64,000 nt of DNA. Source: Bacteroides caecimuris (GTDB lineage Bacteria > Bacteroidota > Bacteroidia > Bacteroidales > Bacteroidaceae). This document shows positions 4,525-63,929 of this stretch, one piece after another. Location: NCBI RefSeq assembly GCF_001688725.2, contig NZ_CP015401.2, positions 1,240,001 through 1,304,000 on the forward strand. The letters are read 5' to 3'. The position numbers and the translations under genes were made by a program. The stretch's first letter is position 1. Every line of letters begins with the position of its first letter. Below the pieces are notes generated by a model that saw only the letters and a program-made list of their open reading frames with translations, did not search any database and was not told the origin of the DNA.

Positions 4525-4638
<114 letters not shown>

Positions 4639-54667: not shown

Positions 54668-55717
54668 ATGGCTAAAAAGCACTCATTATCTGTTGAAAAC
54701 ATAGATCAGGTTGCTATTGATTTTATAGCGACAAAACCTTCATATTCAATCAAAATAACAGATTGCCAAGAAGGTAAATTAAAAAAAATAGCAATAACTC
54801 ATAATAAGGAAACAGGTATCTTAAACTGTTTTATTAATGGCGGGCAAGTTTCTTACAGTACGCAAGGAAAAGCACATTTAAAAGGAATATGTGAAGAATG
54901 TTGGAACGTTATCCTTCAAAATACTTCAATTCCTTGCCCTGATAAGAAAAGCTTTACGGCAAAAGGAATAAGTGAAGAAGATTTTGATGCTTTTATAGAT
55001 GTATTATCGGAAAGTGATGAAATCGAAATAACTACGGTCAATACAGATAACAATCCTGCTATCAGGAACCAATATCATTTAAAGGGGAAATATGATGCCA
55101 AGGTATCTATTATTTTTTATAATAATGGGACTTTATTTTTACAGGGAGCTGTAACAGCTTTTTATATTGAGCTTATTACAGAAATAATGGAGACAATATC
55201 TTCTGTTCCAACCGAAGTAATGGAAGACTTCTTGGCTATTCAACCTTTAGTTGGATGTGTGATAGAAAAAGATTTGAATAAGCATTTCACGAAAACTGAA
55301 AACATTGAAGGAAGTATTCTTGAAGATTTTCTGAAAACATCTATTGCTCTTGCTAACTCCGGTGTTGTGGTTGATGATTACGGGTGTTATACATTCGGTA
55401 TAATGAAGGCTTTGGATGGCTTGATTAGCAAAAGACTCTTGGAAGACGCACCGGATTTTAAAGATTATGGTACATATTTTGAGAGAGGTAAAGACGGAAA
55501 CTACCATTTTTTGGAGAATGTGGGAACTTACAATGGTAATCCCTCGTTAAAAAGAGCATTGGAAAAAGCGTATGACTTTTATAACAAGAATCGGCATACA
55601 ACTTTCCATATTGATCGCAGGAACTTAGAAACAAGCAGAACCTTATATTATGATGAAGCGGTAAACATAATAAAGGACGGACTTGTTATTATAAATGACT
55701 TATGTACTAATTGGTAA
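54668..55717 (+). CDS. rnlA: RnlA-like toxin (RNase LS family)
   Basis: 349 residues, close to the usual RnlA length. The N-terminal part has repeated small alpha/beta domains (SYSIKITDCQEGKLKKIAIT, KGISEEDFDAFIDVLSESDE). The C-terminal HEPN-like domain ends with FYNKNRHTTFHIDRRNLETS, which holds the RxxxxH catalytic pattern of HEPN RNases. RnlA cleaves mRNA when phage infection removes its antitoxin. It is followed by an RnlB-like gene four bases on. AT-rich, unlike the topB module before it. Confidence 0.75.
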   Translation: MAKKHSLSVENIDQVAIDFIATKPSYSIKITDCQEGKLKKIAITHNKETGILNCFINGGQVSYSTQGKAHLKGICEECWNVILQNTSIPCPDKKSFTAKGISEEDFDAFIDVLSESDEIEITTVNTDNNPAIRNQYHLKGKYDAKVSIIFYNNGTLFLQGAVTAFYIELITEIMETISSVPTEVMEDFLAIQPLVGCVIEKDLNKHFTKTENIEGSILEDFLKTSIALANSGVVVDDYGCYTFGIMKALDGLISKRLLEDAPDFKDYGTYFERGKDGNYHFLENVGTYNGNPSLKRALEKAYDFYNKNRHTTFHIDRRNLETSRTLYYDEAVNIIKDGLVIINDLCTNW

Positions 55718-55721
55718 AGAA

Positions 55722-56108
55722 ATGAAGACAAAAGATTATCAAATAATCTCTTTAGGAGAACGAAGTTTTTTAGTAGTAGTTCTGTCATTGGAAATGACGG
55801 ATTACTATTGGACTGCTCTCCAATCAGAATTGGCAAAATATAATGTTGCCGATGCTGAAGTTTATTTTGATTTTCTATACCGTAACGGATTAAAAAATAG
55901 ATTTTTCAAAACTAAGCTCATGGGAGTTAGTCTATTGAATAATTCTTTGAGAAAATGTAAAGCTACACAAGAGTGTATTAGTGCTTCTGATAAATTCTTT
56001 ACTTTGCATAAGGATGTGATTGAACATAGCGTATTATCGTCTATTCAAAAAACATTCTTTAGAAAGAAATTAGACAGAACTAATATTCTTCCGACAAATG
56101 TACTTTAA
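55722..56108 (+). CDS. rnlB: RnlB-like antitoxin
   Basis: 128 residues from ATG 55722 (a start at 55695 would overlap rnlA). The sequence YQIISLGERSFLVVVLSLEM and VYFDFLYRNGLKNRFFKTKL fits the RnlB pattern, and the length is near the known 123 residues. It should hold RnlA inactive and be unstable. A strong terminator follows. Confidence 0.65.
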   Translation: MKTKDYQIISLGERSFLVVVLSLEMTDYYWTALQSELAKYNVADAEVYFDFLYRNGLKNRFFKTKLMGVSLLNNSLRKCKATQECISASDKFFTLHKDVIEHSVLSSIQKTFFRKKLDRTNILPTNVL

Positions 56109-56211: not shown

Positions 56212-56305
56212 TTTGTCTTTCAAAGAATTTACCTTATCTTTGCACCAATAGAACCCGCCAAGCCTCTTGATAATGCTCAAATAGGCGGGTCGTTTTTTAT
56301 TCTGC
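56212..56305 (+). ncRNA. Candidate small RNA or attenuator leader
   Basis: TTTG (56212-56215), 19 bases, TATCTTTG (56235-56242) is a perfect promoter. From the start near 56249, ACCCGCC and GGCGGGT pair about 30 bases apart and are followed by CGTTTTTTATT, an intrinsic terminator. Transcription would end before the HipA_N gene at 56338 unless read-through occurs, so this is either a ~50 nt RNA or an attenuator. Confidence 0.5.
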
Positions 56306-56337: not shown

Positions 56338-56688
56338 ATGAATAGAACGATGAAAAAACAGGCTATTCATTCGGGCAAAGGGCAGGCTGACTTCATCTTG
56401 ACATTGAACAAACTGGAGGTCGGTACGTTGTTGTATGCCGATAATGTTTGGTTTTTCTCTTACTCGGAAGAGTTCAAGAGGCAGAGAGACATCCTGCCGT
56501 TGGTAAATTTCCCGACGGTAGATAAAGAATACTCATCCAGCGAGTTGTGGCCCTTCTTTGTTTCCCGCATACCGAGCCGTGCACAACTCCAAGCTCCCAA
56601 AGGTACAGAAAGGCAGGATTTGGTTTCTCTGCTTAAAAACTACGGTCGTAAGACGATAGCGAACCCGTATCAACTCATTCCGGCTTAG
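56338..56688 (+). CDS. Lone HipA N-terminal-domain protein
   Basis: 116 residues. The block KLEVGTLLYADNVWFFSYSE, then LPLVNFPTVDKEYSSSELWP and FFVSRIPSRAQ matches the N-terminal subdomain of HipA kinases. In many Bacteroidales this domain is a separate short gene followed by the kinase body, but no kinase follows here; after a terminator (56798) comes the invertase gene. It is probably a leftover of a HipA-type module. Confidence 0.6.
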   Translation: MNRTMKKQAIHSGKGQADFILTLNKLEVGTLLYADNVWFFSYSEEFKRQRDILPLVNFPTVDKEYSSSELWPFFVSRIPSRAQLQAPKGTERQDLVSLLKNYGRKTIANPYQLIPA

Positions 56689-57113: not shown

Positions 57114-57722
57114 ATGATATACGGATACATTAGAGTAAGCAGTGACAAGCAGACGGTAGAAAACCAACGTTTTGAAATCAATAATTTCTGCGACAATCAA
57201 AACATGAAAATTGATGGTTGGATTGAGGAAACCATTAGTGGAACAAAAGCCTACAACAAACGGGAACTTGGAAAGTTGCTCAACAAAGTACAGAAAGATG
57301 ATTTGATTATCTGTGCTGAATTGTCCAGATTGGGCCGTAATCTCTTTATGATAATGGAAATTCTGAATATTTGCATGGGCAAGGAATGTAGGGTTTGGAC
57401 TATCAAGGACAACTATCGGTTGGGGGAGGACATTCAAAGTAAGGTGTTGGCTTTTGCTTTTGGACTGTCAGCTGAAATTGAGCGTAACCTTATTAGCCAA
57501 CGAACCAAAGAAGCTTTGGCACGAAAAAAAACAGAGGGGGTGGTATTGGGACGTCCTAAAGGGAAAAAGAGTGCTCCAGAGAAGTACAAGCTCCACGATA
57601 AGAAAATTCTCATACAAGAACTATTGAAAGCAGAAGTTTCACAGCGCAAAATCGCTAAAATTTGTAAAGTGGATAGAAATACGCTCGCCCGATTTATCAA
57701 GACTTTTATGGTAGAAACATAA
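57114..57722 (+). CDS. Serine DNA invertase, Mpi/Hin type
   Basis: 202 residues, the normal length of invertases. The N-terminal catalytic domain begins MIYGYIRVSSDKQTVENQRF with the serine nucleophile in RVSS; ELSRLGRN and ERNLISQRTKEALARKK are typical, as is GVVLGRPKG at the linker. The C-terminal helix-turn-helix (VSQRKIAKICKVDRNTLARF) binds the crossover sites. Members include Mpi of Bacteroides fragilis, which flips promoter segments. It ends one base before the 22 bp inverted repeat that borders the invertible segment, so it is the likely switch for the restriction-modification gene. Confidence 0.92.
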   Translation: MIYGYIRVSSDKQTVENQRFEINNFCDNQNMKIDGWIEETISGTKAYNKRELGKLLNKVQKDDLIICAELSRLGRNLFMIMEILNICMGKECRVWTIKDNYRLGEDIQSKVLAFAFGLSAEIERNLISQRTKEALARKKTEGVVLGRPKGKKSAPEKYKLHDKKILIQELLKAEVSQRKIAKICKVDRNTLARFIKTFMVET

Positions 57723-57723
57723 G

Positions 57724-57745
57724 GAGCGATTTTGTGCAGCAAGAG
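57724..57745 (+). repeat. Invertase crossover site, copy 1
   Basis: 22 bases beginning GAGCGATTTTGTGC and ending AGCAAGAG, starting just after the invertase stop. A dyad T-TTG...CAA-A lies within it. In the cassette frame it encodes SDFVQQE, the same residues as at copy 2. Confidence 0.85.
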
Positions 57746-58648
57746 TGTGTGGTGTGCGACTTCGTTTCCTCAGATTCGTGGGTGATACTCTCGCCTATTG
57801 AGCAGAGTATCAAACGGAAAATTGATGCTGTGGGAACTCCATTGAAGGACTGGAACATTCAAATCAACTACGGTATTAAGACAGGATTCAATGACGCATT
57901 TATCATCAACACTAAAAAGCGTGATGAGATATTGGCGAATTGTCAGACAGAAGATGAGCGTCAAAAAACGGCTGAACTTATACGACCGATTCTCCGTGGC
58001 AGGGATATCAAAAGATATGAATATGAGTGGGCGGACTTGTGGATTATAGCCACATTTCCTTCGCGGCATTATGATATAGAAAGTTATCCTGCGGTGAAAA
58101 ATTATCTTCTGTCAATTGGCATAGAGCGTTTGGAACAAACAGGAGAAACTCATATTGTTAATGGCAAAAAAATAAAAGCCCGAAAGAAAACCTGTAACGA
58201 GTGGTTTGAAACACAAGATAGCATCAGTTATTGGGAGGATTTTTCTAAGCCAAAAATTGTGTGGGGAGAAATATCTGATAAATCAAAATTTGCTTTCGAC
58301 TTTTTAGGGGAATATATACCAGAAGCAACTTCTTTTTACATGAAAGGCGAATGCATTGAATACCTTTTGTCTGCTTTAAATTCGTCTGTGTCTGAATGGT
58401 TGTTTTCTAAAGTAGGAACAACTACAGGAGTGGGGACAATTAGATGGAAAAAGTATACCATAGAACAGCTTATTGTTGCTAAGCTATCTACTGAACAACT
58501 AAATACTCATCTTGCTGCTTTCAATGATTTGAAAGTAGGCAAGATGAGTATTACGGATTTTGAATGTTTTAGCAATAAGTTGATGTATGATATTTATAAG
58601 CTTACCTCAGATGAAATTCAATATATTGAAAACCAGCAAACTTTCTAA
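57725..58648 (+). pseudogene. Silent alternative C-terminal specificity cassette
   Basis: Open frame of ~308 codons with no start codon of its own beyond GTG, no promoter and no methylase domain. From SDFVQQE it follows the expressed gene's C-terminus (DSWVILSPIEQSIKRKIDA, then EILANCQTEDERQKTAELIR) but then diverges strongly in the target-recognition part (FPSRHYDIESYPAVKNYLLS) and keeps only the framework (YWEDFSKPKIVW). It ends TAA one base before the stop of the expressed gene on the other strand. Best read as an unexpressed alternative module, not an independent gene. Confidence 0.85.
57915..57991 (+). repeat. 77 bp perfect inverted repeat inside the specificity region, copy 1
   Basis: Identical to the inverse of 59331-59407. 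Encodes the conserved KRDEILANCQTEDERQKTAE part of both alternative C-termini. The identity stands out against diverged flanks and suggests gene conversion. Confidence 0.8.
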
Positions 58649-58649
58649 T

Positions 58650-61600
58650 CTAAATAGACTTTCGGAGTGAAGAAACAAATGAATGTAGAAAATTAGTTTC
58701 TTCACTCGTGAATCCATATACCATTGAAACCAAACTCTCTATTTTAGAGTCAATGAATGGTAGATTGATATTTTTATTTGTTATACGTTTTGCAAGTTCA
58801 GCTAATTCAACAAGTTCTATTTTGTTTGCATCATAAAGAGGTATAGGGAAAGTCGCTATATTTTGACCTCCAACTTGAACATCTCCAACGCCAGTTTTAT
58901 TCATATTAGTCACATAGCTATACCATGTTATAGCTTGTGAATTCAGTACAGCCAACAGATAATCCAAATGATTGCCTGTCATAATATAACACGCATTGTT
59001 CATTACATAATTGTTGGTATCATATGCAAAAGCCATTTGGTTCCCGATTATTTTCCATACAATTTTTGGCTTAGAAAAATCCTCCATATATGCGCAGTTT
59101 CGTAGGTTATATGGCGTATCACCTCGGTCAGACCGTTTCTCTATTTGTGAGAATCCCTTATACATCTTACCGCTATAGGCTATACCTCCATTATCCAACC
59201 ATTCTTTAATTGCAGGATAATCATTTATATTTACAGGCTTTATTCCCTTATTTTTCAATCCATTATGTGTATTAATAAGCCAAAGACCAGCCCAATCATA
59301 TCCGTAACGTTTCACATCGCGTCCTCTCAAAATCGGTCGTATAAGTTCAGCCGTTTTTTGACGCTCATCTTCTGTCTGACAATTCGCCAATATCTCATCA
59401 CGCTTTTCGGTAGAAATGATAAACGCATCGTTATACCCAGTAAGGACTCCTCGATAAATGTTTATATTCCAATCTTTGAGTGGTGTACCAATAGACTCAA
59501 TCTTACGCCTGATACTTTGCTCGATTGGCGACAATATTACCCAACTGTCACTACCGGAGAAATCGCAAATGGTATGCTCTTGCTGCACAAAATCGCTCAA
59601 ATTATTCAATCCATTCGCATCTTGTACCAAACAAGCTTGTGTGTTAAAAATATTTGCTGCTTTTTGAGATAAAAGAATATTTGCTTCTACCGTTATTGCA
59701 TCGAATATTTTTATACCTGCAAAATCTATCAACATAATAGGATTCGTTTGGCTTGCAAAGTAATCTCGTAAGGCTTCACCGTATCCTGCACGCATCCATT
59801 TATTAGACGTGATATAGCAAAGATAACCATTAGGACTAAGTAGATTCATACCCAACTCATAGAAGAGACAGTAAATATCACCAGTACGTGCATAAGTTAC
59901 GTAACCCATGCGTTCCAATACATCGGCACTCTTACCCATAGATTGTAACTGAATGTAAGGTGGATTGCCAATGATACAGTCAAATCCCAAGAAGTTACCT
60001 TCGGCATCGAGTACTTCTGGAAATTCTATACGCCATTCGAATGCGCCAAGGTAAATTTTGTTGGAACGTATCTCCTCAAATATATTTTCTAAAGTTGCAA
60101 CCTCTTTCTTTAAGTCGGCAATGCGCTTGTCTAACGCTTTCTTTTCCTTTTTTGTCGGTTCAAACAGTTGAGGTGCTTGTAAGGTTGCCAACTCAGAGCG
60201 GCGTTTGTTCAATCTAACCAATCGTGCATCCCTGCGGCTAATCTCTGTTCTCAGTTTCGACTTGATTTCAGTGATAAGCGTTTCCAAATCCTGCTTTTCG
60301 CTTTTACTTTGGGCATTTTTATATTTAGCTACAGCCTCCTTATATTGGCTGATGCTAATACCAGACTCTCGCAGTACGGTCTGAATACTGTCAGTCAAAG
60401 CGAATCGGTGAAGCAAAGAATTTCCACACTTGATATTAATGTCGATATTTGGCAAGGTCTCCAAATAGGTATAGTTACTTTCAGCCGTATAATAAGCATT
60501 CTTCAACAATTCAATCCACAGCCGTAGACGGCAGATTTTCACAGAGTTGGGATTAATATCAACGCCAAACAAACAGTTCTCAATGATTTGACGCTTCTCC
60601 TTGAAAAGGGTTTCCTGCATGCGGCGACTTTCCGCATTGAGTGTGTTGTAAGCAAATAAGTTGCCTTCGGCATCGGTCACAATCAGCTCATCATTTTCAA
60701 TGGCAAGTTGATAGTCAGCTTTGCGGATACGCTTACCGGTAGCATCTACCAAAATACCCAATTCGTATTTCAAGAGTATCAGTTCATTGAGAGCAGACAC
60801 AAGAAAGTGCCCCGAACCAACAGCAGGGTCACATAGGTGTAAATTGTTAATCAGTTCATTGGCTTCGGCTATATTGTCGATACGGTTGTATAAGTCTGTA
60901 CGGGTGGCACAATTCCAGCCATAGCAATCATTAAACTTTTGCAGTACGGTCTTGGTGATTGCTTCGCGGCACATAAACATAGTGATAAAGCCTGGTGTGA
61001 ATACTGAACCATCTTTGTGGCCGTTTATTTTTTCGAATATGAGACCTAAAACAGAGGCATTGATGAGTGTTTTAGCCTCTTCTTGCACTTCTTCACTGCC
61101 TTCGCTCGCAAAGTTATAAGCATCAAGAAAAGCAAACAAGTATTGCAGGGTAGGCAATGCGCTGACTTGCAGATTACGTTTGGGGTTCCGCAATACGCTA
61201 CTTGTCAAGACGGGAAGTTCCGTACGCTGTGAAAGGCTGTTTATCTTGATTGTTTTACTTTCCAAATCTGTCACCTCGAAAAGAGAACTGTTGAGATAGG
61301 GAACGTAAGCAAAATCACGCATAATGGACTGTGTGCGGTGGCTCATGTCACGTGCAAGCACTTGGAAAAAAAGTGTGTTGAGGTCATCATAGTCATGAAT
61401 CTTGGCTGTTGAAAGAAATTTATAGATAACATCTCCATTGTGGTATTTCAACATCTGAGCCTCCAACAGTTTCAAGAAAAGGATGCGATTCATCCAAGTG
61501 ATGCACAGTTCCATTGCAACATTAAATAACCGTTCCTCATAATCGTTCCCATACAGACTACCATTTACGTGGCGCAAACAATCCTCTGCATCCAGTTGGT

Positions 61601-62462
61601 TAATAGTATTCTCCAGTAATGAAGCCTCGTCACGCCGTTCCACAGCTTTGCGTACAATCACGGTCTTGTTATTCTCTTTGCGTTCCTCAATACCAATAAT
61701 GTGTAGCAGCTCAGTGTAGAATCCACGGTTGAGCGAATTGCTGTCGTTCTGGAACGATAGCTTCAAAAGGTGTGTGTCGCTGAATATCTTATAAAGTTCG
61801 ATAAGTTTACGTGAAGTACTGCCGTCTGTTTTATCAAGCAGGTGTCGATAGTCCTGTAAGTTGAAGTAAGTGTATTCAAGGCTGTCTTTCACCTCCTCAA
61901 TATAGGTTGTTGCAATTTCAGTATAGAAGAAGTCGGTTTTACTACTGGTCTTGCGCCCATCCACAAAATCTTGAAACTCACGATGTAGTTGTCTGTTAAG
62001 ATAGAATTTGCGTTCAAACTCATGGGCGTCAAAAATAAAGAATTCATGAATATTAGTAGCGATGAGATATTTAATATCGTTGTTCTTCTTACTGACACGT
62101 TCTTTGAGATAGTATAGCAATAATTCCTGCAAAGCTTTACGATTGAGATTGTCATTAGAAATCATCTCACTTTTGTTGGTGGTGCTCTTTACCTCAATCA
62201 ATAACCCAATATTGGACTTGGTAGTTTTATCCAACCGGATAGCCAAATCAATATCTTCTTCGGGAGCCATGTAGTATGTCTTGTAGAACGTTTCGCTTAG
62301 GAAATTACGTAAATGTTCTTTCTGCGTTTCTTCTCTTTGCCCATCCACTACATTGTCTCTCAATGTGCGAAGGGCATTTTTGAATAGGTCAAAATCTGTT
62401 GTTTCAATCGCAACCTGTCTATATGCTTTGTTCAGAACTTGATTCGGTTTGAGTAGTCCCAT
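58650..62462 (-). CDS. Type IIG restriction-modification enzyme, phase-variable
   Basis: 1270 residues. N-terminal PD-(D/E)xK-like nuclease (EEDIDLAIRLDKT ... IGLLIEVKSTTNKS, residues ~60-90), a long helical part, then an N6-adenine methyltransferase: motif I LCDPAVGSGHFLVSALNE (~residue 545) and motif IV IGNPPYIQLQSMGK (~residue 840). The C-terminal ~330 residues are the target-recognition part. The sequence IR encoding SDFVQQE joins methylase and recognition regions. Both cutting and methylation lie in one chain, as in Eco57I/MmeI-type enzymes, so swapping the recognition part changes both together. It faces the invertase across the invertible segment. Confidence 0.9.
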   Translation of the reverse strand: MGLLKPNQVLNKAYRQVAIETTDFDLFKNALRTLRDNVVDGQREETQKEHLRNFLSETFYKTYYMAPEEDIDLAIRLDKTTKSNIGLLIEVKSTTNKSEMISNDNLNRKALQELLLYYLKERVSKKNNDIKYLIATNIHEFFIFDAHEFERKFYLNRQLHREFQDFVDGRKTSSKTDFFYTEIATTYIEEVKDSLEYTYFNLQDYRHLLDKTDGSTSRKLIELYKIFSDTHLLKLSFQNDSNSLNRGFYTELLHIIGIEERKENNKTVIVRKAVERRDEASLLENTINQLDAEDCLRHVNGSLYGNDYEERLFNVAMELCITWMNRILFLKLLEAQMLKYHNGDVIYKFLSTAKIHDYDDLNTLFFQVLARDMSHRTQSIMRDFAYVPYLNSSLFEVTDLESKTIKINSLSQRTELPVLTSSVLRNPKRNLQVSALPTLQYLFAFLDAYNFASEGSEEVQEEAKTLINASVLGLIFEKINGHKDGSVFTPGFITMFMCREAITKTVLQKFNDCYGWNCATRTDLYNRIDNIAEANELINNLHLCDPAVGSGHFLVSALNELILLKYELGILVDATGKRIRKADYQLAIENDELIVTDAEGNLFAYNTLNAESRRMQETLFKEKRQIIENCLFGVDINPNSVKICRLRLWIELLKNAYYTAESNYTYLETLPNIDINIKCGNSLLHRFALTDSIQTVLRESGISISQYKEAVAKYKNAQSKSEKQDLETLITEIKSKLRTEISRRDARLVRLNKRRSELATLQAPQLFEPTKKEKKALDKRIADLKKEVATLENIFEEIRSNKIYLGAFEWRIEFPEVLDAEGNFLGFDCIIGNPPYIQLQSMGKSADVLERMGYVTYARTGDIYCLFYELGMNLLSPNGYLCYITSNKWMRAGYGEALRDYFASQTNPIMLIDFAGIKIFDAITVEANILLSQKAANIFNTQACLVQDANGLNNLSDFVQQEHTICDFSGSDSWVILSPIEQSIRRKIESIGTPLKDWNINIYRGVLTGYNDAFIISTEKRDEILANCQTEDERQKTAELIRPILRGRDVKRYGYDWAGLWLINTHNGLKNKGIKPVNINDYPAIKEWLDNGGIAYSGKMYKGFSQIEKRSDRGDTPYNLRNCAYMEDFSKPKIVWKIIGNQMAFAYDTNNYVMNNACYIMTGNHLDYLLAVLNSQAITWYSYVTNMNKTGVGDVQVGGQNIATFPIPLYDANKIELVELAELAKRITNKNINLPFIDSKIESLVSMVYGFTSEETNFLHSFVSSLRKSI
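59331..59407 (-). repeat. 77 bp perfect inverted repeat inside the specificity region, copy 2
   Basis: Partner of 57915-57991, lying in the expressed type IIG gene. Confidence 0.8.
59577..59598 (-). repeat. Invertase crossover site, copy 2
   Basis: Inverse of 57724-57745, inside the type IIG gene at the junction of methylase and recognition regions (codons for SDFVQQE). Confidence 0.85.
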
Positions 62463-62521: not shown

Positions 62522-63929
62522 CACCGGCACAATAAAAACCGAGGCCAACCCTCAAACTCTGCTTCATACTTCGTTTAATTGTTACGAATGTCCTATATTT
62601 AAGGAGTGTAACTAAAAAATCTCAAATATGGACAAAGACAGAATCGTGGCCGGCCTTGATGTCCACAAAGATACAATTTATCTCTGTGTGATGGATAATA
62701 CCGAGGCCGTTATTTTTGCAAAAGTTTATGGTACATTGACTCCTGATTTAGAACTTGTGTGTTCCGAGATGGTTTCTCATGGGGTGACAGAGGCAGCCAT
62801 GGAAAGCACTTCAACCTATTGGGTCCCTGTGTGGAATGCCTTGTGCGAGAGCATGTCTCTCAAATTGGTAAATCCTTATTTTATAAAGCAGCTTCCCGGT
62901 CGCAAGAGTGATGTGAAGGATGCCCAATGGATAGCGGAATGCTTGTTGAAGAATCTGATTCGTGGAAGTTTTGTGCCGGATAAGACAGTGCAGGACATGC
63001 GCAAGTATAACCGTCGCATCTTCGACCTGAATGAAGACCTGACGTATAACAGCAATAAACAGGACGCTGCTTTACAGCGATGTGGCTTCCGGTTAAGTAA
63101 CTATGTCTCCCGAGTCAATGGAAAAAGCTATCAGAAGTGCGTCCGTGCAATAATAACCGGGATAACCGACCCTGAGGAGCTGGTGAAACTCATTCATGGA
63201 AAAACTCTACGGAAATACGGACGTAACATCATAAAGGATGCCGTAACGGGTGACTTTCACCAGGCAGACATCTGTTTGTTAAAGCAATACGCAGAGCTTA
63301 TAGGGGTAATCGAGCGACAAATCGAAGAATGCAGGAATGCTCTCATTTCCATGTGCCAGGAACACTTCCCGAAACAATTCAAACGTCTACAGAGCATCCC
63401 CGGTGTTAAAGAACGCGCCGCTTCGGCTATAATTGCGGAGACTGGGGCTGACATGAAACCGTTTGAAAAAGCAACAAACCTTGTGGGATGGTGTGGATTG
63501 AAACCACGCAATGATATAAGCAACAATAAAGTCAAAAGCAACAGGACGACGCATGGGAACCGATTCCTGCGTCAGATATTGATTGAAATATCCTGGGTCG
63601 CATCAAGAACCCGAAACTGCTTTTTCTCAAACTTCAGCTACGTGCAATGCACCCAACGCCATAAGAACAAGATGAAGATACAAGTAGCCATCGCCCGAAA
63701 GTTATTGGTCGCAGTATGGCACATGCTGACAAAAGACGAGGATTTTATAGATGTTTACCTCAAGCGGCTTGAAAAGCAGGCGGAATGGCAAAATGATCTT
63801 CAAGCATTAGAATCGTTATTGGTCGGATAGACCTTTCCGATATACCTCTATCGACAACATAATTACCTTTGTGCTGCCACATGAGCGCGTTTACAAAATT
63901 ATTGTATCCATAGAGGGATTGGACACCGG
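62522..63929 (+). mobile_element. IS110-family element, ends tentative
   Basis: About 1.4 kb around an IS110 transposase. ACACCGGC occurs on both sides (62522-62529 and ~63922-63929) and may mark the recombination core, as these elements make no target duplication and lack ordinary inverted ends. The downstream flank has a long-range pair CCTCTAT (63847) with ATAGAGG (63912), a possible part of a guide (bridge) RNA. Boundaries need comparison with another copy. Confidence 0.5.
62628..63830 (+). CDS. IS110-family DEDD transposase
   Basis: 400 residues. The N-terminal DEDD RuvC-like domain begins VAGLDVHKDTIYLCVMDN with Asp, then AAMESTSTYWVPVWNAL with Glu, and RKSDVKDAQWIAECLL with the Asp pair. 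The C-terminal IS116/IS110/IS902 domain has LQSIPGVKERAASAIIAETG and KATNLVGWCGLKPRNDISNN, with a later Ser-containing helix. A -7 box TATATTTA (62594-62601) and AAGGAG precede the start. The frame is intact. IS110 enzymes use a structured RNA encoded in the element to choose target and donor. Confidence 0.9.
   Translation: MDKDRIVAGLDVHKDTIYLCVMDNTEAVIFAKVYGTLTPDLELVCSEMVSHGVTEAAMESTSTYWVPVWNALCESMSLKLVNPYFIKQLPGRKSDVKDAQWIAECLLKNLIRGSFVPDKTVQDMRKYNRRIFDLNEDLTYNSNKQDAALQRCGFRLSNYVSRVNGKSYQKCVRAIITGITDPEELVKLIHGKTLRKYGRNIIKDAVTGDFHQADICLLKQYAELIGVIERQIEECRNALISMCQEHFPKQFKRLQSIPGVKERAASAIIAETGADMKPFEKATNLVGWCGLKPRNDISNNKVKSNRTTHGNRFLRQILIEISWVASRTRNCFFSNFSYVQCTQRHKNKMKIQVAIARKLLVAVWHMLTKDEDFIDVYLKRLEKQAEWQNDLQALESLLVG

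What the first reader, a model, noticed from the sequence alone, without database searches (positions are those of the whole stretch)
57114..62462. Phase-variable type IIG restriction-modification system switched by its own serine invertase
Seen: a Hin/Mpi-type invertase gene ends one base before a 22 bp sequence whose exact inverse lies inside a type IIG gene 1.85 kb away, where methylase meets target-recognition region. Both copies encode SDFVQQE in frame. Between them lie two tail-to-tail alternative C-termini with different recognition sequence but shared framework. Inversion would therefore swap specificity while keeping nuclease and methylase. Known: phase-variable type I HsdS and BREX PglX loci use related logic. 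A single-chain type IIG enzyme with a dedicated adjacent serine invertase is, as far as I know, much less described.
Basis: partly seen in the sequence, partly recalled or inferred. Interest (0 to 1): 0.9.

Follow-up and report, generated by a model that had tools for sequence, protein, structure and literature searches.

The report
Restriction enzyme with shuffling recognition parts
A gut bacterium's single-chain DNA-cutting and DNA-marking enzyme sits next to a DNA-flipping enzyme and a spare copy of its recognition part, and sequence comparisons indicate that three nested flips can mix the parts into up to eight different enzymes rather than the two first suspected.

Summary
A 22-bp exact inverted repeat (57724-57745 / 59577-59598) links an Mpi-type serine invertase gene to the methylase/recognition border of a type IIG enzyme (58650-62462, minus), and inverting it keeps the frame (1270 to 1262 aa). 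The two-state reading is incomplete. The recognition region carries three nested site pairs (S1, S2, S3) bounding three modules; all eight inversion states stay in frame. Across genera the sites are peaks of synonymous-codon conservation and resemble each other; in some relatives the silent cassette starts at S2. Natural recombinants exist: B. oleiciplenus shows the reciprocal S3 exchange, and in one lineage of 89 listed proteins 80 carry two alleles per module in all eight combinations, with no significant linkage. The layout recurs in Bacteroides, Chryseobacterium, Mucilaginibacter and an Opitutales MAG. Most likely: an invertase-driven three-site shuffler of type IIG specificity. Not shown: inversion within one culture, that this invertase acts at all three sites, and any change of DNA motif. 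The window's own inverted form was not found. Programmed inversion of type II enzymes is, as I recall, already reported (Milman 2023, not readable here); I found no description of the three-module design.

The parts
57114..57722 (+). Mpi-family serine DNA invertase, 202 aa
   Evidence: NCBIfam NF009949 349.7 bits against cutoff 272; Ser9 and the RLGR motif align with the PDB DNA-invertase 4m6f
57724..57745 (+). Site S1, silent copy
   Evidence: exact 22-bp inverted repeat
59577..59598 (-). Site S1, active copy, methylase/recognition border
   Evidence: lies in model helix 174-181
57724..58648 (+). Silent cassette: alternative recognition modules M1-M2-M3, no methylase part
   Evidence: TaqI_C 44.7 bits; open from S1, 307 aa
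57971..57991 (+). Site S2, silent copy
   Evidence: GCTGAACTTATACGACCGATT, one copy per strand; end of a 77-bp exact inverted repeat
59331..59351 (-). Site S2, active copy
   Evidence: synonymous conservation
58234..58260 (+). Site S3, silent copy
   Evidence: GGAGGATTTTTCTAAGCCAAAAATTGT, one copy per strand
59059..59085 (-). Site S3, active copy; the exchange point between the window and B. oleiciplenus
58650..62462 (-). Type IIG restriction-modification enzyme, 1270 aa
   Evidence: PADLOC REase_MTase_IIG 1022 bits; DUF7149, DUF7814, Eco57I, TaqI_C; NPPY at residue 833 and a D..ExK stretch from residue 70
57724..59598 (.). Outer invertible segment (S1 to S1); S2 and S3 segments are nested inside it
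   Evidence: in-silico inversions, 8 of 8 states in frame

Best explanation
The locus is a combinatorial specificity switch. A serine invertase recombines three nested pairs of inverted sites: S1 at the start of the recognition region, S2 and S3 within it. Inversion at S1 exchanges modules M1, M2 and M3 between the expressed gene and the silent cassette, S2 exchanges M2 and M3, and S3 exchanges M3 alone. Together they reach eight enzymes that share one nuclease-methylase body. SHOWN: the sites, the frame, natural recombinants at the module boundaries in relatives, and DNA-level conservation of all three sites. INFERRED: that the adjacent invertase acts at all three; that sites pair only with their own kind (perhaps through different central bases); and that each combination recognises and methylates a different DNA motif.
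For: Eight distinct open proteins of 1262-1270 aa from the three site pairs. Among divergent recognition regions overall synonymous identity is 0.49, but it reaches 1.00 (rounded) at codons in each of S1, S2 and S3. At S2, 30 of 32 copies in 16 invertible loci use CGA (Arg); of 73 loci without a detected cassette the motif was found in 53, and 47 of those have Lys. A matrix from 29 S1 copies finds S2 at rank 1 of 580 offsets and S3 at rank 1 of 780; S2 reads in a different frame. In L165, L167, L169 and L022 the cassette begins at S2, in L167 with only 13 exactly shared bases. B. oleiciplenus L002 shows the reciprocal S3 exchange. One lineage of 89 listed proteins has 80 in all 2x2x2 combinations, with no significant association between modules. 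Proteins 0-2 substitutions from the B. ndongoniae body carry reassortments of that isolate's own two cassettes.
Against: No culture, read set or methylome was examined. The window's own fully inverted form was not found: the best-scoring of the 120 listed proteins match its recognition region at 77-78%. Most combinations come from metagenome assemblies; the rarest two were seen 2 and 1 times, and M1 against M3 gives p 0.06. In a held-out scan of the whole window active S2 and S3 rank 5 and 7 of 127,954 positions, but an unrelated place ranks 3 (15.9), their scores (9.1, 8.0) lie inside the range of shuffle maxima (5.5-14.5), and the silent S2 and S3 copies are not among the 16 places printed. 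Not every codon of the sites is fixed (TTT in S1 0.50, CCG in S2 0.60). No exact repeat of 13 bp or more was listed at S2 in L165. Three of 10 close invertase relatives have no type IIG gene in the stretch fetched. L009, L011 and L073 have an invertase relative but no detected silent cassette.
Confidence: 0.78

Rival explanations
1. Generic homologous recombination between the active gene and the silent cassette makes the combinations; the invertase acts at most at S1.
For: Long shared stretches exist: 77 bp exact in the window, 136 bp in L093, 111 and 96 bp in L101.
Against: L167 shares only 13 bp exactly at S2, with unrelated outer flanks. Conservation peaks sit at the three boundaries while other conserved framework codons vary. 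S1, S2 and S3 resemble one another.
Confidence: 0.25
2. Simple two-state switch at S1 only; inner-module mixtures are metagenome assembly chimeras.
For: Most combination data are from assembled metagenomes.
Against: The isolate genome of B. oleiciplenus shows a reciprocal S3 exchange relative to the window's one-contig genome. Each of the eight combinations has a representative whose longest contig is at least 31.7 kb (lengths, labels). Half cassettes beginning at S2 exist.
Confidence: 0.07
3. The silent cassette is a decaying duplication with no present switching.
For: No inversion was observed directly in the window's organism.
Against: The cassette is fully open. The layout recurs in many loci with different bodies. 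Proteins with the same body differ by module combination.
Confidence: 0.06

Closest known systems
Phase-variable type I HsdS loci (pneumococcus, Mycoplasma, Bacteroidota)
   Same: Inversion between expressed and silent specificity sequence; modular target recognition; several specificities per locus.
   Different: There a separate S subunit is shuffled; here the recognition domain of a single-chain enzyme, with three exchange points. In a gut-community study the restriction subunit S invertons went with tyrosine-type recombinases (PMC11892184, passages); here the neighbour is a serine invertase.
Gene-altering programmed inversions of type II systems (Milman et al. 2023, NAR)
   Same: From memory: predicted type II restriction-modification targets of inversion.
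   Different: Not readable here, so whether it includes this family, its sites or its three modules could not be checked. I saw only its title, in the references of PMC11892184.
Shufflons (R64 type, tyrosine recombinase Rci; recalled)
   Same: Several inversion sites let one locus make many C-terminal variants.
   Different: Serine invertase; nested site pairs inside one domain; each pair appears (inference) to recombine with its own kind.
Mpi / Hin-type serine invertases
   Same: Same recombinase family as Mpi.
   Different: Mpi of B. fragilis is described as inverting at least thirteen scattered regions (PMC5903667, passages); this one sits beside coding-sequence sites.
Campylobacter jejuni phase-variable type IIG enzyme (Anjum 2016; title seen in reference lists)
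   Same: Phase-variable type IIG enzyme.
   Different: There, by recall, switching at a homopolymeric tract; here a change of recognition modules by inversion.

Membership tests
Type IIG restriction-modification enzyme | Methylase and recognition domain in one chain | tested here: met
Type IIG restriction-modification enzyme | Endonuclease domain in the same chain | tested here: inconclusive
   A D..ExK stretch from residue 70 within DUF7149; no fold or activity test of that part
Type IIG restriction-modification enzyme | Cleavage at a fixed distance from the recognition site | not testable with these tools
   needs enzyme
Mpi-family serine invertase | Family profile above curated cutoff and catalytic serine | tested here: met
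   349.7 bits against 272; Ser9 aligned to the serine of PDB invertase 4m6f; that this serine is the catalytic one is recalled
Mpi-family serine invertase | Catalyses inversion at its sites | not testable with these tools
   needs assay
Invertible specificity switch | Inverted repeats joining expressed and silent alternatives, frame kept | tested here: met
Invertible specificity switch | Alternative states seen in nature | tested here: met
   in relatives only; the window's own inverted form was not found
BREX PglX/BrxX | PglX family profile above cutoff | tested here: not met
   best 70.9 bits against cutoff 500

The most novel reading that the evidence does not exclude
One serine invertase recognises three related but mutually exclusive sites hidden in coding sequence. 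It independently reassorts three sub-modules of a single recognition domain, so each locus is a three-bit switch giving eight restriction specificities and methylomes, and the design is shared across Bacteroidota and perhaps beyond.
Probability: 0.55. Interest if true: 0.87.

Novelty: new variant of a known kind. Interest (0 to 1): 0.77.

Why it matters
A single-chain enzyme that changes specificity by reassorting pieces of one recognition domain would give gut bacteria many defence and methylation states from one locus. It would also supply natural cut points for building new type IIG specificities, since the same boundaries recur in many combinations. It sharpens an open question: how a cell survives when an enzyme that cuts and methylates changes target on an unmodified chromosome. 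The eight natural forms make that testable.

Tried and rejected
Viral-contig scans with two lineage proteins (P0187, P0099) each gave one distant locus, on the same contig. A first structure model was poor (pLDDT 62); a more diverse alignment gave 88.5. On dyad symmetry: the reverse S1 matrix also hits S2 (offset -12), suggesting a centre at GA|GC; I do not press it. The S1 copies were picked by requiring GAGCG, so the active copy of L005 (GAGCA) is left out of them. In one search my S1 pattern mis-hit two rows (L053 and L145, plus strand), so the S1 within-locus figure there is unreliable. BREX PglX was considered and rejected on profile score.

Literature searches that turned up no description of three-site inversion in a type IIG gene: (held open-licence library only; one search matched 423 papers and one search matched 53, of which 20 each were listed; one search matched 28, of which 20 were listed).

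Full report
OBSERVATION. The 22-bp sequence GAGCGATTTTGTGCAGCAAGAG occurs once on each strand of the window (57724-57745 and 59577-59598). The invertase stop codon ends at 57722, one base before the first copy. Both copies encode SDFVQQE in frame, and inverting the segment gives an open 1262-aa protein in place of 1270 aa. The large gene is a type IIG enzyme (PADLOC model 1022 bits) with DUF7149, DUF7814, Eco57I and TaqI_C domains. The silent cassette matches TaqI_C alone. The invertase passes the Mpi-family profile (349.7 against 272 bits). In the whole 4.84-Mb genome the two S1 copies are the best matches to the core, with one more at three mismatches.

THREE SITES, NOT ONE. The repeat search reported further inverted pairs inside the segment, including one with a 77-bp exact core ending at 57991 and 59331. 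Aligning the window with its closest named relative, B. oleiciplenus (L002, 98% identical in the body), showed that the two distal parts of the recognition region are exchanged reciprocally between the active gene and the silent cassette, with the switch inside EDFSKPKIVW (DNA). The recognition region therefore splits into M1 (S1 to S2), M2 (S2 to S3) and M3 (S3 to end). In silico, S1, S2 and S3 inversions alone and combined give eight distinct open proteins of 1262, 1263, 1269 or 1270 aa.

NATURAL RECOMBINANTS. Searches list the best 120 of 3453 and of 1139 proteins; together 239. Of 244 sequences (these, the window's own, and four from loci, two of which are one place), 220 could be divided into modules; 24 were dropped as short or lacking a motif. 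In one lineage of 89 proteins, bodies at least 96% identical, two alleles at each module account for 80 proteins in all eight combinations (19, 18, 14, 14, 7, 5, 2, 1); nine carry further alleles. Fisher tests on the 80 give p 0.62 (M1-M2), 0.21 (M2-M3) and 0.06 (M1-M3). All 89 come from the search with the methylase part (checked), so they were not chosen by recognition sequence. Each of the eight combinations has a representative whose longest contig is at least 31.7 kb (lengths, labels). Of 26 groups of proteins sharing an identical body of 900 aa or more, 25 show more than one combination. The database merges near-identical proteins, which inflates this, and one group holds the same locus twice. 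The isolate B. ndongoniae carries cassettes (1,1,1) active and (2,3,3) silent, the silent M1 matching allele 2 at 88% and M2 and M3 at 98-99%. Proteins with bodies 0, 1 and 2 substitutions away show (1,3,3), (2,1,3) and (2,3,3): what inversion at S2, at all three sites, and at S1 would give.

SITES ARE CONSERVED AS DNA. Thirty-two distinct recognition regions from 17 loci (15 with both copies, one silent copy, one active copy of a locus without a detected cassette) gave 496 pairs, of which the 448 divergent ones have overall synonymous identity 0.49. Codons reaching 1.00 (rounded) lie at S1 (AAT, AGC, GAT), S2 (GAA, ATT) and S3 (TAT, GAG, GAT), with only one other at that level, a Tyr codon in M3. 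Not every site codon is fixed: TTT in S1 is 0.50 and CCG in S2 0.60. At S2, 30 of 32 copies in 16 invertible loci use CGA and two CGT. Of 73 loci without a detected cassette the motif was found in 53: 47 have lysine, six arginine, and the only two with CGA are L003 and L004, close relatives of the window. A matrix from 29 S1 copies (chosen by the string GAGCG), slid along the recognition regions, finds S2 at rank 1 of 580 offsets and S3 at rank 1 of 780. S2 is read in another frame, so protein homology does not explain that match. With the window and its nearest relatives held out, the S1 copies rank 1 and 2 among 127,954 positions, active S2 rank 5 and active S3 rank 7. An unrelated place ranks 3, the S2 and S3 scores lie within the range of shuffle maxima, and their silent copies are not among the 16 places printed, so this scan alone would not find them.

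DISTRIBUTION. Of 111 loci held, 18 rows (14 distinct places besides the window) have an invertase relative and recognition sequences on both strands. They include 6 of the 80 named loci: B. oleiciplenus, B. ndongoniae, two Chryseobacterium, and MAGs of Mucilaginibacter and Opitutales. In the genus, 25 of 158 genomes (own included) have a match to the cassette, and 10 show two opposed copies close together; in one of these (G522) the matches are only 51-52 residues, and an eleventh (G507) has two short overlapping ones. In the phylum, 9 of 392 genomes (own included) have a close invertase relative, at 10 places; 7 places lie beside a type IIG gene and 3 do not within the stretch fetched. In L165, L167 and L169 (and L022, whose contig shows no invertase and whose active copy matches only to about S2) the cassette starts at S2. 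In L167 the shared exact sequence at S2 is 13 bp, in L169 19 bp; in L165 none of 13 bp or more was listed at S2, but 24 bp at S3. These half cassettes are independent evidence that S2 is a site of its own.

KNOWN AND NEW. Papers were seen as passages only: PMC5903667, PMC5608340, PMC11892184, PMC11868660, PMC12707154, PMC13076061 (reference list only), PMC10333322. The passages of the first four speak of inversion in type I systems or surface loci; in none of the seven did I see inversion of a type IIG gene. PMC5608340 reports several related motifs around a two-gene Prevotella type IIG locus without invoking inversion for it in the passages seen. Milman et al. 2023 could not be read; from memory it names type II systems among new inversion targets, so I do not claim the basic idea as new. 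The three-site, three-module design is what I did not find described.

LIMITS. Inversion was not seen within one culture, the window's own inverted form was not found, the enzyme's motif is untested, and the role of the invertase at S2 and S3 is inferred from site resemblance and gene association.

Noticed in passing
window 56254-56290 (+) and 56338-56688 (+): An abiF RNA (Rfam RF03085, 57.3 bits) lies just upstream of a 116-aa gene with a HipA N-terminal domain, to my mind an unexpected partner for that RNA.
   Followed up: no
window 54668-56108 (+): RnlA/RnlB-type toxin-antitoxin pair near the restriction locus.
   Followed up: no
window 62628-63830 (+): IS110-family transposase immediately upstream of the type IIG gene, a possible source of mobility or promoter effects.
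   Followed up: no
window 4527-4638 (+): A 5S rRNA hit without other rRNA families at gathering score in the window.
   Followed up: no
L111 (15.5-kb circular record, B. finegoldii), L003, L004, L051, L104, L106: Close relatives (88-93% in the best segment) of the enzyme for which one search reported no opposed silent cassette; for L104 and L106 only about 1.5 and 0.7 kb downstream were held. L003 and L004 keep a strong S1-like site. Possibly frozen forms on a mobile element.
   Followed up: partly
P0121-P0124 and P0128-P0132 (P0121 read): Nine 1398-aa proteins; in P0121 the type IIG body runs through M1 into M2 and is then followed by unrelated sequence (PF14092 listed for six of the nine).
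   Followed up: no
L107 (viral-collection contig): A 94% relative whose active recognition region and invertase are interrupted; left as it is.
   Followed up: no
L170 (G621): A divergent type IIG gene beside a close invertase relative, with a different 20-bp inverted repeat (GGTGAATTTTATTCGACAAC): perhaps another site class.
   Followed up: no
L009, L011, L073: Type IIG gene followed by an Mpi-like gene but no detected silent cassette.
   Followed up: partly
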